The translations under genes were made by a program, and so were the position numbers. Shown in pieces: positions 35,614-40,626 of a stretch of 51,102 nucleotides of DNA; position 1 is the stretch's first letter, and the number at the start of each line of letters is the position of its first letter. Source of the stretch: a virus. The notes below the pieces were generated by a model, which worked only from the letters and a program-made list of their open reading frames with translations, did no database searches and was not told the DNA's origin. The DNA is taken from positions 1 to 51,102 of IMG/VR virus record IMGVR_UViG_3300007351_000010, one strand, 5' to 3'.

Positions 35614-37239
35614 CTAAAACCCCAATTGCTTCCCTTCAGCCTTCTTGATTTTTTCGGCTTTCTTGAAAGTGCCGGCATCGGGCGGCATCTGGATCTCTTT
35701 CCCGGAAAGCAGATCCTCGATGGTCAGAATCTGGATGCGGGGATACTCCTTCTGCCAGATCGGGGAAGTGTACTTGCCGGCTTCCAGGGCTTCCTTGAGC
35801 ATCGGGACGCTGGGCGGCTCCAGGGTGATATACACGGCCAGGGCAGCTTTTTCACGTTCGAGAACGCCATGCAGGTCCCGGATGTCGCTAGATTTGACGT
35901 GACCCGATTTGACCTGGATGATCACCCGCTGGAACGCATCGCTGGTGTTGTCGATAAAATTGATCGTGCCATCAATGCCCTGATCGGCGCCCTTTTTACC
36001 TTTCTTGCTGGACGGATCGCCGCCTTCCGGCCTGGCGCGCACAAGCGATAGCGCCCACCATTGGAACTGAAAGCGATCATCCTGGGCAAGCTGGCGAGCA
36101 GATTCCATATCTTGCGGCTCGCCAACTACCTGATACTGGCTGGTAGGGAACATATCTTTCATGCGGTAGCGAATCAAGCTGATTGCCAGGTGAGTGATGT
36201 CGATACCGATCCAGCGCCGACCCAGTTTCTCGGAGGCGGCAACAGCCGTCCCACAGCCACAAAACGGGTCCAAAACAACGTCGCCCGGATTGCTGCTGGC
36301 CTGGATAATACGTTCGAGCAAGGCAAGGGGCTTCTGGGTGGGGTAGCCGAGGCGTTCGGCGGCCTGAGAGTTGATGGGAGGAACATCATCCCAAATATCT
36401 TGAAGGGGCGTTCCCTGCATTTCATCCAGGTAGCGAATATACTCAACGCTTCCCGATTTTGTGTAGTGTAGCCTGCCTTGATCGTGAAGTTCTTGCATCT
36501 TTTTCTCTGGGCATCGCCATATCTTTGTTACGCCATTCCATGCATACTCATAGCCGCCGCCAGAAAGACTTGTAGCTGTGAGATTGTCGGTCCTAAACTT
36601 TCGACCAGCTTTGTCCAGATAGCGGTAATGGCTCTTTATGTACTCATTACTGTATGGTTGATATTGCTTATTCCACAAAAGTGTATCTGATTTTGAATAG
36701 AACAAGATTACATCATGGGAGTTGCCCAGTGTTTTGGAATCGCTATGAGCGCTTGTGCGTTTCCAAATGATTTCGCTATTAAAGTTTTCCGCCCCGAATA
36801 CTGTATCCAGAATCACCTTCAAATAATGGCTGGCCGTTGGGTCGCAATGCAGATACAGGCTGCCGGTTGGCTTGAGAACCCGCTGCAGCTCCACCAGGCG
36901 GGCAGCCATCATTACCAGGTAGGCGCCCATCGGGCTGTGACCGACAATGCCGAGCATGGACTGGACTGCATCATCCACTTTCCCAGGGTTGGCACGAATC
37001 AATTCATTCAGTGCATTATCGGCGGAATCGCCCCAATGCCAGGAATCACCAAAGGCGGTTATCTGAGCATCGGCAGATTTACCGCCTTCATCCCTGAAAA
37101 GAACATTATAGGAGCGATTAGAGTTGAACGGGGGGTCGAGGTAGATCAGGTCAACGGATTCGGACGGGATGTAATCCCGAAGGATGGGGAGATTGTCCCC
37201 ATAGAAGAGGGTATTACTGATTATCGGTTTTGGGTTCAT
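35614..37239 (-). CDS. DNA methyltransferase fused to an Mrr-like nuclease
   Basis: 541 residues. The methyltransferase part has catalytic DPPF (35-38) and SAM motif [11 protein letters not shown] (about 320), in the beta-class order. Residues about 390-500 form a PD-(D/E)XK unit of Mrr type: [12 protein letters not shown] then VIIQVKSGH. Methylation and cleavage in one chain resemble type IIG or Mrr-type fusions. It probably protects the prophage and cuts foreign DNA. AGGA 7 nt before the ATG; opposite strand to its neighbours. Confidence 0.9.
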
Positions 37240-37268
37240 GGCAAATCCTGGATGGTGGTCTACCCAGG

Positions 37269-37298
37269 ATTATAAACCATTTGGAAGCAGAATGATAA
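37269..37298 (-). promoter_or_regulatory. Promoter of the methyltransferase-nuclease gene
   Basis: Minus-strand -35 TTATCA (37298-37293), 18-bp spacer and -10 TATAAT (37274-37269). Start near 37262 with a short leader. Confidence 0.6.
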
Positions 37299-37521
37299 AT
37301 TTTACAGATAGTTTTCTTGCCGAAGGAATTTAGGAGAACAAGATAAGACTACGAAAAATCCGGACTGTTCATTTCCAGTGTTATGATACTCTCGTCTGAT
37401 CTCTAAGAGATAGAGTTGACCAACCGAAAATGCTTGATCGAATAAAGAACATTCGTTTTATAGATATTTATTACAATCTTTGCTATAATTTAATTTGTCC
37501 ACATTATAGATTAGGAATGCT

Positions 37522-38388
37522 ATGACAATTTGCGTTGCTGTAAAAGTTAGCGAAGGTTTGGTGTTGGCAGCTGATAGTGCTGCAACAATCCATGGTGAGC
37601 TTCACTTACCCAATGGAGAGGTTTCAATCGGTATATTGAAAACTTATGAGCATGCTCGTAAGCTTTCGCACGTCAAGGATTACCCAATTGGCACTTTGAG
37701 TTGGGGACTATCCTTGATCGGACCTCGTAGTGTAGAGAGTTTGATAAAAGAATATGAATACAGCCTTCAATCTCTCCAAGAAGAACAAGAAAAGGCGCAC
37801 CTTTGCAGACTGGAAGGCCGAGCTGAAGTTGATCCGTTTAGGTATCAGGTTAGAGACATCGCACAAGGATTGTTCCAGCATATTAAAAAATTCTATGAGG
37901 CTAATTTACCCGAAGATAAACGCTCCCCGCTTGGCATCCTTGTAAGTGGTTATTCTTCAGACCAGTTCTTTCCAGAACAATTTATGATCCAAATTCCCGA
38001 ATCTCCAGATTTGAAAGAGTTGCGGAAAGATGTTAATGGAAAGCCGAACTTTGGAGCTGACTGGTTTGGGCTGACAGATGCCATGACACGTTTGCATTGG
38101 GGACGTGACCAACAGGTAGTCGCCATAATTGCTGATCGATTCAAAGTAGAGAAAGAAGAAGTTCGTCAACTGCTTGAACCACTCCAGTATCAAATAGTAT
38201 TTGATGGTATGCCGCTTCAAGATGCGATAGATTTTGCTGTTTATGTTGTAAATGTAGTGATCGGAAGATATCGTTTTGTTCTTGGTGCTCCACTTTGTGG
38301 AGGCGAAATAGATGTTGCCGTTATTACACCTGACAATTTCACATGGATTAATAGAAAAGCCTGGAAAATTGACAATCGCATTAGTTAG
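37522..38388 (+). CDS. Proteasome beta-like (Ntn hydrolase) protein
   Basis: 288 residues. After Met removal, TICVAVKVSEGLVLAADSAAT matches the start of proteasome beta / HslV subunits, with Thr1 and Asp17 in the catalytic spacing and an RKLSH lysine after an insertion. The rest keeps a four-layer-like pattern (ALQYQIV-type strands, VLGAPLCGGEIDVAVI). AGGA is 6 nt before the ATG, and a TATAAT box lies at 37484. It heads a three-gene run with a small protein and a Doc toxin. An ATPase partner is not seen here. Confidence 0.8.
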   Translation: MTICVAVKVSEGLVLAADSAATIHGELHLPNGEVSIGILKTYEHARKLSHVKDYPIGTLSWGLSLIGPRSVESLIKEYEYSLQSLQEEQEKAHLCRLEGRAEVDPFRYQVRDIAQGLFQHIKKFYEANLPEDKRSPLGILVSGYSSDQFFPEQFMIQIPESPDLKELRKDVNGKPNFGADWFGLTDAMTRLHWGRDQQVVAIIADRFKVEKEEVRQLLEPLQYQIVFDGMPLQDAIDFAVYVVNVVIGRYRFVLGAPLCGGEIDVAVITPDNFTWINRKAWKIDNRIS

Positions 38389-38407
38389 TTACTTGAGAGG
38401 ATGAAAA

Positions 38408-38626
38408 ATGTTCCCCCTTATTTCAGTCGATGGTACAGTATCGACAAAACCACAAATAATACAAGGTGAGATTGTTATTGAAATCGGAACCTTAGACACC
38501 GGTAATATAATTTTTGCCCACAGGCCAAAGAAGTATCATCAGTTGCCTCAGCCGGAAGTTGTAGAAAGCCTCGAACGCAGTCTGGAAGAGAATGCTGCTG
38601 TATGGGAAGAGCTATCAAAACTCTAA
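38408..38626 (+). CDS. Small protein, possible antitoxin (72 aa)
   Basis: AGAGGA 8 nt before the ATG. Beta-rich start (MFPLISVDGTVSTKPQ) and an acidic helical end (VVESLERSLEENAAVWEELS). It overlaps the Doc gene by 25 nt, the usual arrangement of an antitoxin gene. No known antitoxin fold is recognised; an antitoxin role is inferred from context. Confidence 0.65.
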   Translation: MFPLISVDGTVSTKPQIIQGEIVIEIGTLDTGNIIFAHRPKKYHQLPQPEVVESLERSLEENAAVWEELSKL

Positions 38627-39012
38627 CCCAAGCAGATATAATAGTCATTAACCATTGGATGATTCGGAGATTTGGTGGGGTTTTCTTTAGCCACGATAAC
38701 AATTTGGCGAACCCTGGGTCGCTTGACCATGTACTAGAGGCGATCGAGGGTTCGCTGTTTGGTCAGGAACTGTATCCCACATTGTTTGAAAAGGGAGCCG
38801 CTATTGCTTGGCGAATTATTAAGGGGCATGTTTTCCATGATGGCAATAAACGGACTGGTATGGAGGCATGCCGTAACTTTTTTGATCTAAATGGCTATAT
38901 ATTAAAGATGGATAATCAAACCATCGACGTTGCTGTTGATATAGCCTCAAACAAAATGGAATTTCCAGATTTCGTGGCATGGATTGAAGGACGAATCGAA
39001 AGTAAACCATAG
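38602..39012 (+). CDS. doc: Doc / Fic-family toxin (136 aa)
   Basis: HVFHDGNKRTG (76-86) is the Fic/Doc active-site motif with His, Asp, Asn, Lys and Arg in place. Doc proteins of this length phosphorylate EF-Tu. GGVFF and the ALL-helical frame agree. It overlaps a small gene and stands after a proteasome-like peptidase. No classical Phd antitoxin is seen. Confidence 0.88.
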   Translation: MGRAIKTLTQADIIVINHWMIRRFGGVFFSHDNNLANPGSLDHVLEAIEGSLFGQELYPTLFEKGAAIAWRIIKGHVFHDGNKRTGMEACRNFFDLNGYILKMDNQTIDVAVDIASNKMEFPDFVAWIEGRIESKP

Positions 39013-39116
39013 ATAGAAACTAAACCAACAAGGATTACCAGAAATTTAATCGGTCAGGCAAATCGGAATACCGTCTATCGGTGGTTCAAAACAAGACTCT
39101 GAAGGTTGGGTTATAA

Positions 39117-40295
39117 ATGGATTATTCGAGATTTGTTGAACTGATAAATGGGGGAGAAAAGCGCAATGTTGATTTTAAGATCAAATGTGATGCCTTTCAA
39201 CAATCGCTTTCTTCTAATGCGGAATTAGCCAAAGATATCTGCGCAATGTCTAACAATGGCAACATTGTCAGTTATATAATTCTGGGAGTGTCTAATGACA
39301 GGAAGAATTTTCTTTCGGTGGCTAATCCCAACTTGAAGGACGACGATCTCCAGGTCTTCTGCAAAACTAGAATTTTTCCACCTCCGAAAGTTAAATTAAT
39401 TCGAAAATCTTGGTCAAAGGCTCACACTAATCACAAAAACAAGGAATTTGTCATCATCCAAATTGGACCTCATCGGCGTCAAGCATTTCGTCTAGCTCAA
39501 GATTTTATTAATTACGCCGAGGAAATTTGTTACAGACGAAATGAAGTTTGGATTCGACGTGGTGCTACTTCGGATTTAGCAACACCGGAGGAAATTGAAC
39601 GGCTTATAAAAGGCGAAGCAATAGAGAATACTCCAGATGATATATTAAAACAGGAGGAAAGGTTGAATTTTAGCAAATTAGCTGTTGCTAATAGGTTGTG
39701 TGATATAAACGCTGCTACAAACGATGAATTGCGAAGACTCGGCTTTAAAAAAGCTAAAGAGAAGCAAGAGAGGCGAAGGAGACTTTCACTCCAGGAGGAA
39801 TTACTCAACGCGATTTATCCCAGAAGTAAAAAACTCGACTGGTATCTTAAGAGATATCCGTCATACGTCATGGCCGTTTATATGAATAATAGTAAAGAAA
39901 GCCTTTCTCAAAAAGAAATCGAACAATTTGAGATCAGAATTCTAGCCTGGCTTCATTTTGCAAGAAAAAGTGACTTTCCGCCGCTATTATCGAAGATTAT
40001 AAACCAAGATGTTTTACCAATTAGACGGCTATTGTTGCAGCCAGTACTGGCAAATGTGCCACGCAAAAGAATACAAACCGCATTGAAAACTTGGAAATGG
40101 GCCGGATACTGCTCACATTACTTCACACCTGTAAGCAATACAGGATATTCTTCAGATACCTTTTTCCCCTCGAGTTCGGAATTATTGATAGTTGATGACA
40201 TAGAATCGGTATCGGACTACAAAGAAGAACTTCTTAAAGCTTTGCAACTCGTTACAGAAAACGAGAATACTATTTGCTCACCAATAACCGGATAG
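39117..40295 (+). CDS. AlbA_2 / Schlafen-type protein (392 aa)
   Basis: Residues about 8-130 match the AlbA_2 domain (VDFKIKCDAFQQ, AKDICAMSNNGN, YIILGVSN). The rest is helical, basic and Asn/Lys-rich, with several tryptophans. Proteins with this domain are common in defence islands and mobile elements. Here the base use is AT-rich, unlike the phage core. No ATPase motif is visible. Confidence 0.8.
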   Translation: MDYSRFVELINGGEKRNVDFKIKCDAFQQSLSSNAELAKDICAMSNNGNIVSYIILGVSNDRKNFLSVANPNLKDDDLQVFCKTRIFPPPKVKLIRKSWSKAHTNHKNKEFVIIQIGPHRRQAFRLAQDFINYAEEICYRRNEVWIRRGATSDLATPEEIERLIKGEAIENTPDDILKQEERLNFSKLAVANRLCDINAATNDELRRLGFKKAKEKQERRRRLSLQEELLNAIYPRSKKLDWYLKRYPSYVMAVYMNNSKESLSQKEIEQFEIRILAWLHFARKSDFPPLLSKIINQDVLPIRRLLLQPVLANVPRKRIQTALKTWKWAGYCSHYFTPVSNTGYSSDTFFPSSSELLIVDDIESVSDYKEELLKALQLVTENENTICSPITG

Positions 40296-40359
40296 AATAA
40301 TAAAAGTGAAATAACTATGCTAGAGCCCATGGCGCCCGCCTCACCCCGGCCTGCGGCTT

Positions 40360-40626
40360 TTAAAATTCTACCAATGAGAAGCGAGATGGACTTTCCATCA
40401 GGTCCTGGGCGGCGGTCTGGGCCAACCCGTCGATTTGCTGAAGGATAGTGGAGATCTCGGATGCGCTTCGTTCGGGAGCGCCGGCGGGGCGATCATCGCC
40501 AACGGGACCGATGGCCTGACGAAGGGCGACCAGGCGGTCACGCAGCTCGTGGTCATCGTGGACTGCCATCAACTGGTAGAGCTCCAGTGGCCTTTTACCC
40601 TTCTCACTTTTTTGTTTTGCGCGCAA
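40360..40626 (-). CDS. Unknown helical protein (88 aa)
   Basis: Helical and charged (DDHELRDRLVALRQAIG, ISTILQQIDGLAQTAAQDL). The longest frame starts at a TTG inside palindrome copy 8, with GGGGGAG just before; an ATG at 40569 is an alternative start. Downstream of the terminator at 40673, so it is not part of the long leftward operon. Confidence 0.55.
   Translation of the reverse strand: MRAKQKSEKGKRPLELYQLMAVHDDHELRDRLVALRQAIGPVGDDRPAGAPERSASEISTILQQIDGLAQTAAQDLMESPSRFSLVEF

What the first reader, a model, noticed from the sequence alone, without database searches (positions are those of the whole stretch)
37522..39012. Proteasome-like peptidase / small protein / Doc trio
A proteasome beta-like protein with T1 and D17, a 72-residue protein and a Doc toxin with an intact HxFxDGNKRTG lie in one direction, the last two overlapping. 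I know of no described system of this make-up. A simple model is a toxin-antitoxin pair in which the peptidase controls the antitoxin, giving abortive infection.
Basis: inference. Interest (0 to 1): 0.75.

Follow-up and report, generated by a model that had tools for sequence, protein, structure and literature searches.

The report
Proteasome-linked toxin–antitoxin module on phage
A phage carries a small "poison and antidote" gene pair led by a gene for a proteasome-like protein cutter, and the same three-part arrangement, with the poison swapped for other kinds, turns up in distant bacteria and archaea, which suggests that an uncharacterised relative of the proteasome has repeatedly been wired to growth-stopping toxins.

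Summary
The trio is real and no chance neighbourhood. It lies in a low-GC cassette of a circular-looking phage contig. The peptidase has a confident proteasome-beta fold with T1, D17, K33 and G47 intact; it best fits the PMI proteasome homologs described in 2021, for which no telling genomic context was known. The third gene is a Doc toxin. The 72-residue protein is very probably its antitoxin: its C-terminal helix matches a tail profile built from Doc antitoxins of unrelated plasmids and phages (13 of 13 PMI-Doc loci, 0 of 88 other PMI small proteins), while the usual N-terminal domain is replaced. Beyond the window, 36 of 115 PMI loci carry a type II toxin as second downstream gene (Doc 13, RelE/ParE 10, PIN 9, MazF 4); a matched upstream set shows none. 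PIN- and ParE-like-linked small proteins carry the tails of those toxins' antitoxins. So PMI peptidases head a modular three-gene toxin–antitoxin system with swappable toxins in bacteria, archaea and phages. That the peptidase acts on the antitoxin's N-terminal part is the best reading but inferred; phage defence is untested. No description was found in the papers searched.

The parts
37522..38388 (+). Proteasome-like peptidase (PMI type), 288 aa; nucleophile T1 37525-37527, D17 37573-37575, K33 37660-37662
   Evidence: Fold; catalytic residues kept in relatives; extra helices 199-207 and 211-221:
38408..38626 (+). Small protein, 72 aa: chimeric Doc antitoxin
   Evidence: Starts 19 nt after the PMI stop with a Shine-Dalgarno-like GAGAGG; tail profile match p 0.0005
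38408..38551 (+). N-terminal part of the antitoxin (residues 1-48), no known domain; proposed handle for the peptidase (inferred)
   Evidence: No Pfam or NCBIfam family; low-confidence strands in the model; not a Phd or AbrB domain as in outside Doc antitoxins
38552..38620 (+). C-terminal helix of the antitoxin (residues 49-71), Doc-binding tail by homology
   Evidence: Helix 49-71, mean pLDDT about 87-95 by block; matches outside Doc antitoxin tails
38602..39012 (+). Doc toxin, 136 aa
   Evidence: Pfam Fic, TIGR01550, PHROG 577 Doc-like toxin 4e-23, PDB Doc chains 9vzc, 3k33, 3dd7
38827..38853 (+). Doc active-site motif HVFHDGNKR
   Evidence: Read; the form H-x-x-x-D-[GA]-N-K-R is kept in 13 of 13 PMI-linked Docs
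37461..37489 (+). Promoter-like site ahead of the peptidase (TAGATA, 17 nt, TATAAT), a lead only
   Evidence: the number of such sites in the region (8) is what shuffles give (7.7), so no evidence by itself
39117..40295 (+). AlbA_2 (Schlafen-type) gene in the same low-GC stretch; membership of the module uncertain, probably a separate cargo gene
   Evidence: PF04326 45.8 bits; GC profile; not a recurrent neighbour

Best explanation
A three-gene toxin-antitoxin module. Doc is the growth-stopping toxin (by homology). The 72-residue protein is its antitoxin: its C-terminal helix holds Doc (strongly supported by sequence), while its N-terminal part is a handle for the neighbouring proteasome-like peptidase (inferred). 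The peptidase cleaves or degrades the antitoxin through this handle, so that the element supplies its own antitoxin turnover and need not rely on the host's Lon or Clp; loss of the element, or a trigger such as infection, tips the balance and frees Doc (inferred). Elsewhere the same peptidase-plus-handle unit is coupled to PIN, MazF or RelE/ParE toxins by changing the antitoxin tail (seen in sequence for Doc, PIN and ParE-like). I put about 0.9 on the toxin-antitoxin assignment and about 0.55 on the peptidase acting on the antitoxin as a protease.
For: Order PMI, small, Doc in 13 loci. Second downstream gene is a type II toxin in 36 of 115 PMI loci; in 144 downstream ORFs every Pfam family hit more than once is a type II toxin family, NCBIfam agrees; none in 149 matched upstream ORFs among the 25 of 27 families printed; Fisher p 6.6e-13. 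Tail test 13 of 13 against 0 of 88; PIN and ParE-like antitoxins of PMI-free plasmid loci match only the C-termini of class-matched small proteins, bar one match at E 0.03. L114 and L143 share residues 1-63 (46%) although only L114 has a toxin and the longer end. Toxin start a median 4 nt before the antitoxin stop. T or S at position 1, K33 and G47 in 36 of 36 toxin-linked PMIs, D17 in 35 (1 E), so catalysis is under selection. A coupled small ORF also follows toxin-less PMIs more often than other genes (30 of 75 against 23 of 433), so the peptidase-small protein tie does not depend on the toxin.
Against: No experiment. No conserved motif was found across the N-terminal parts, so a common handle is not shown. 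71 of 107 scorable loci on the tree have no recognised toxin. L027 and L028, inside the Doc clade, have no Doc, and L021 has an unidentified gene instead. No AAA+ unfoldase was seen in the trio. In L020, L029 and L098 the called Doc ORF starts late and may be truncated.
Confidence: 0.55

Rival explanations
1. TAC-like stabiliser: the peptidase homolog binds or processes the antitoxin's N-terminal part and makes it competent, so that the antitoxin is addicted to PMI; inhibition or loss of PMI frees the toxin, as with SecB-like chaperones in TAC systems.
For: Same layout of a dedicated third protein, a non-conserved antitoxin segment and swappable toxins as described for TAC (PMC5105189 passages; TAC chaperones protect the antitoxin).
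Against: The catalytic residues are kept in 36 of 36 toxin-linked PMIs apart from one D17E, which mere binding would not require; processing would.
Confidence: 0.22
2. The peptidase is itself the effector or a second toxin, and the small protein is a two-headed inhibitor: its N-terminal part holds PMI in check, its tail holds Doc.
For: PMI genes without a toxin still tend to have a small coupled ORF (30 of 75 against 23 of 433 other genes), as a protease-inhibitor pair would.
Against: Nothing speaks for toxicity of PMI; the small ORFs are not conserved in sequence across clades (one cross-class pair only).
Confidence: 0.12
3. No functional link: PMI genes and toxin-antitoxin pairs are both common cargo of mobile elements and lie side by side by accident.
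For: Many PMI genes lie on viral contigs and the family is sporadic (1 of 60 relatives' genomes, the window's own).
Against: The toxin lies downstream and second, never in the upstream set; genes overlap; the antitoxins keep the toxin tail but have lost the usual N-terminal domain.
Confidence: 0.08

Closest known systems
PMI proteasome homologs, probably PMI-4 (Fuchs, Alva and Lupas 2021, PMC8665760)
   Same: Proteasome-beta fold, T1/D17/K33/G47, extra helices after H1/H2 and between H3 and H4; wide spread in bacteria, archaea and phages
   Different: No toxin-antitoxin context was described; the paper states that no telling genomic context was found. Clustering with its reference set could not be done here
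Phd-Doc and AbrB/MazE-Doc toxin-antitoxin pairs
   Same: Doc toxin with intact motif, short overlapping upstream antitoxin with the same kind of C-terminal helix
   Different: The N-terminal Phd or AbrB domain is replaced, and a proteasome-like peptidase gene heads the operon
TAC, toxin-antitoxin-chaperone systems (PMC5105189)
   Same: Tripartite; a non-conserved antitoxin segment ties antitoxins of several families to one dedicated partner (passages)
   Different: Partner is a SecB-like chaperone that protects; segment is C-terminal. Here the partner is a peptidase homolog and the replaced part is N-terminal
RosmerTA, ImmA-protease antitoxins (PMC10440598)
   Same: A protease tied to varied toxins, also on phages (passages)
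   Different: There the protease domain is in the antitoxin itself, often with an HTH; here it is a separate protein of proteasome fold

Membership tests
Proteasome-like family | Proteasome-beta fold | tested here: met
   pLDDT 94.2; Foldseek E 4e-9; VIA-align Z 20.0 over 191 residues
Proteasome-like family | Active site T/S1, D17, K33 and G47 | tested here: met
   All four in the window; T/S 110, D 109 (3 E), K 112 and G 112 of 112 relatives
PMI-4 subgroup | Insertions after H1/H2 and between H3 and H4 (PMC8665760) | tested here: met
   Three helices 71-128 between strands, and helices 199-207 and 211-221 between 186-193 and 232-251; PMI-3 is described alike, so this does not single out PMI-4
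PMI-4 subgroup | Clusters with the PMI-4 reference sequences | not testable with these tools
   The reference set is not in any collection on hand
Anbu | Clusters with Anbu and has its C-terminal helix H5 | tested here: inconclusive
   Anbu chains score Z 19.8 and 19.6, as high as proteasome beta; the model ends in a strand and a low-confidence tail
Type II toxin-antitoxin system | Toxin of a known family with intact motif | tested here: met
Type II toxin-antitoxin system | Short adjacent antitoxin with a toxin-binding segment | tested here: met
   Tail profile, p 0.0005 for the window; 13 of 13 against 0 of 88
Type II toxin-antitoxin system | Toxicity and neutralisation | not testable with these tools
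   Needs expression tests
Phd-Doc | Phd-type N-terminal DNA-binding domain on the antitoxin | tested here: not met
   No Phd/YefM or AbrB family in Pfam or NCBIfam for the 72-aa protein; short weak domains can be missed
TAC | SecB-like chaperone as third gene | tested here: not met
   The third gene has a proteasome-beta fold
RosmerTA | Antitoxin with ImmA-type protease domain | tested here: not met
   No ImmA-type family in the 72-aa protein or the peptidase

The most novel reading that the evidence does not exclude
PMI peptidases are a general, self-contained switch for toxins in bacteria, archaea and phages: a mobile proteasome relative that reads a transplantable N-terminal tag on small partner proteins. 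Evolution has plugged at least four toxin families into it by grafting the matching antitoxin tail, giving addiction or phage-defence modules that bring their own antitoxin protease; the toxin-less PMI pairs are the same switch with another output.
Probability: 0.4. Interest if true: 0.9.

Novelty: new variant of a known kind. Interest (0 to 1): 0.8.

Why it matters
The 2021 survey that described 22 new proteasome homologs found no context that hinted at a function (PMC8665760). A strict toxin-antitoxin context for relatives of one of its large groups gives a first testable role, ties the proteasome family to toxin control, and offers toxin-antitoxin modules that may bring their own protease, which bears on the open question of how antitoxins are removed. 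It also predicts that toxin-less PMI proteins act on the small proteins encoded next to them.

Tried and rejected
Single-sequence searches failed at first: no relative of the peptidase in plasmids, phages or viral contigs and none in the PDB by sequence; alignments were needed. Pfam, NCBIfam and PADLOC do not name it; PF00227 matches 4 of 50 relatives weakly. PHROG 5990, of unknown function, matches its first 84 residues.

Considered and dropped: AlbA_2 as a fourth member. L011 (genome G359) has an AlbA_2 gene after its PMI too, but the two proteins share only a weak N-terminal match (E 0.013) and it is not a recurrent neighbour. Anbu membership: Anbu scores as well as proteasome beta by fold, so this stays open; its usual operon partners (recalled) were not looked for systematically.

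Results against or loose ends: L027 and L028, inside the Doc clade, have no Doc; L021, also inside it, has an unidentified 127-aa gene after a 165-aa ORF (PADLOC best E 0.04). The called Doc ORFs of L020, L029 and L098 begin 55-107 nt after the small ORF and may be truncated or use another start. L033, L037 and L054 have unidentified second genes and are counted as toxin-less. One off-class antitoxin match, L052, E 0.03. One of ten outside Doc antitoxins (C. difficile phage) was left out of the tail profile because its end did not fit the register rule. The script's small ORF for L047 was replaced by hand with the longer coupled frame. Several toxin-linked loci are close kin (L055/L057, L065/L068, L034/L038). 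Sampling is biased towards relatives of the window (queries A2, A3; best 80 of 122 genome loci), so 36 of 115 is no population rate. Of 26 and 27 Pfam families in the downstream and upstream scans, 25 are printed each. The upstream control used 149 of 155 ORFs: five lay beyond the printed list and one PMI fragment was dropped. The tree is a quick one with long branches (L004, L153, L142). One search also scanned an upstream gene of L020.

Literature: nine searches returned no paper whose listing describes a proteasome homolog in a toxin-antitoxin operon; the library lacks most subscription journals and the bioRxiv collection. Seen: PMC8665760, parts 1-4 of 6 and passages; PMC10440598 and PMC5105189, passages; all others, search listing only.

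Full report
What is there. The window is a whole contig of 51,102 bases with a 99-base exact repeat at its two ends, as expected of a closed circle. It carries terminase, major head protein, tape measure, integrase and ParB-like genes: a temperate-phage-like element. The stretch from about 37,000 to 40,500 is low in GC (38-42%; flanks mostly 45-56%; trio 42.1%, whole contig 53.9%), so the trio looks like acquired cargo. Of 60 genomes of relatives searched, only the window's own has the peptidase; the seven others of its family lack it.

The peptidase. Sequence libraries do not name it, but an AlphaFold2 model from 50 relatives is confident (pLDDT 94.2, pTM 0.90) and is a proteasome-beta fold over residues 2-282 (Foldseek E 4e-9; VIA-align Z 20.0, 191 residues, rmsd 3.0 against yeast beta5; Z 19.8 against Anbu). 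T or S at position 1 is found in 110 of 112 relatives (2 gaps), D17 in 109 (3 E), K33 and G47 in all 112. Extra helices lie at two sites that Fuchs, Alva and Lupas describe for PMI-3 and PMI-4 (PMC8665760). They report 22 new proteasome homologs and state that they found no genomic context suggestive of a specific function.

The trio recurs. An alignment-based scan of one genome per species found 122 relatives, of which the best 80 were kept; further loci came from viral contigs and from 396 genomes of the class of one relative (21 with a match). After removal of duplicates, 115 loci score at least 100 bits and have 300 bases or more downstream. Thirteen, the window included, have PMI, a 63-87 residue ORF, then Doc.

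The toxin is swappable. I took same-strand ORFs of 70-260 residues that start 90-700 bases after the PMI stop, at most two per locus (144 ORFs), and scanned them against Pfam. Every family found in more than one ORF is a type II toxin family: Fic 13, PIN 9, ParE_toxin 5, PemK 4, ParE_like 3, PIN_3 3; RelE is found once. NCBIfam agrees (DOC_P1 13; YafQ, RelE_StbE and Txe_YoeB 4 each; MazF 3). By locus this is Doc 13, RelE/ParE type 10, PIN 9, MazF 4: 36 of 115. A matched set of 149 upstream ORFs gives no toxin family among the 25 of 27 families printed; Fisher p 6.6e-13, with the upstream count taken as 0 of 114 loci. On a quick tree the labels need at least 17 changes; MazF and RelE are scattered (4 and 7 changes), Doc and PIN clustered (3 each), which speaks for repeated swapping. 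Toxin-linked loci include six archaeal records of Methanobacteriota.

The small protein is a chimeric antitoxin. Doc relatives of unrelated plasmids and phages have a short upstream antitoxin that overlaps or abuts them. A profile of the last 20 residues of nine of these, none from a PMI locus, picks all 13 PMI-Doc small proteins (each p at most 0.002 against shuffles of its own end) and none of 88 other PMI small proteins at p 0.01. Outside PIN antitoxins match the C-termini of PIN-class small proteins (for instance residues 86-124 of 131, E 8e-9), and an outside ParE-like antitoxin matches residues 54-97 of 97 of L041 (E 6e-11); all matches at E 0.05 or better are class-matched except one at E 0.03. 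In L114 (RelE-type toxin) and L143 (no toxin found) residues 1-63 are alike (46%, E 1e-16), but the first is 119 and the second 79 residues long. In the window's protein the C-terminal helix (49-71) is predicted with confidence and the N-terminal part is not.

Operon logic. In the 36 toxin-linked loci the small ORF begins a median 5.5 bases after the PMI stop and the toxin a median 4 bases before the antitoxin's stop. With a strict rule (ATG, Shine-Dalgarno, 40-140 residues) a small ORF follows 29 of 36 toxin-linked PMIs, 30 of 75 toxin-less PMIs and 23 of 433 other genes of the same loci. So PMI tends to have a small partner even without a toxin.

How it most likely works. Seen in sequence: a Doc toxin, its antitoxin tail, a catalytically intact proteasome-type peptidase, a fixed order. 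Inferred: the antitoxin's replaced N-terminal part is what the peptidase handles, and proteolysis there sets toxin release. Precedents for the logic are TAC systems, where a short segment without significant similarity between systems makes antitoxins of several families depend on a dedicated chaperone (PMC5105189 passages), and RosmerTA, where a protease-domain antitoxin pairs with varied toxins (PMC10440598 passages). The kept active site favours cleavage over mere binding. What triggers it, and whether it serves defence or maintenance of the phage, cannot be told from sequence.

Novelty. The parts are known kinds; the combination, the chimeric antitoxin and the toxin swapping around a proteasome homolog are not described in any paper listed by my nine searches (named under Tried and rejected). 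I file it as a new variant of tripartite toxin-antitoxin systems, not as a member of Phd-Doc, TAC or RosmerTA.

Noticed in passing
window 1-51102: The contig has a 99-base exact direct repeat at its ends and phage head, tail, integrase and ParB-like genes: probably a complete circular temperate phage genome.
   Followed up: partly
window 35614-37239 (-): DNA methyltransferase (N6_N4_Mtase) with a C-terminal Mrr_cat/NA-iREase-like domain in one protein, next to the trio; perhaps a fused restriction-modification enzyme.
   Followed up: no
window 39117-40295 (+); L011 174-1364 (-): AlbA_2 (Schlafen-type) gene just after Doc; the distant PMI locus L011 also has an AlbA_2 gene after its PMI, with only weak similarity.
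   Followed up: partly
L033 6879-7544; L037 4228-4695: Unidentified second downstream genes after PMI and a small ORF, both with a stretch like S-x-x-CDL; candidate new toxins.
   Followed up: partly
L021 2108-2978: In the Doc clade of PMI, a 165-aa ORF and an overlapping 127-aa gene take the place of antitoxin and Doc; by recall the latter resembles HEPN-type proteins, but Pfam and PADLOC do not confirm it.
   Followed up: partly
L054 6846-7885: PMI followed by a 185-aa protein whose residues 70-153 weakly match PADLOC candidate PDC-M32A (E 7e-4), then a 193-aa unknown protein: maybe a longer antitoxin fused to the N-terminal part.
   Followed up: partly
L099-L102, L046, L049, L053: Phage and Paenibacillus PMI loci with a 44-64 residue coupled ORF and no recognised toxin; amidase-like or holin-like genes lie near some of them.
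   Followed up: no
L005-L009, L002: Shorter proteasome-like proteins in genomes of the window's phylum, some beside phage-like genes; further proteasome homologs of unknown role.
   Followed up: no
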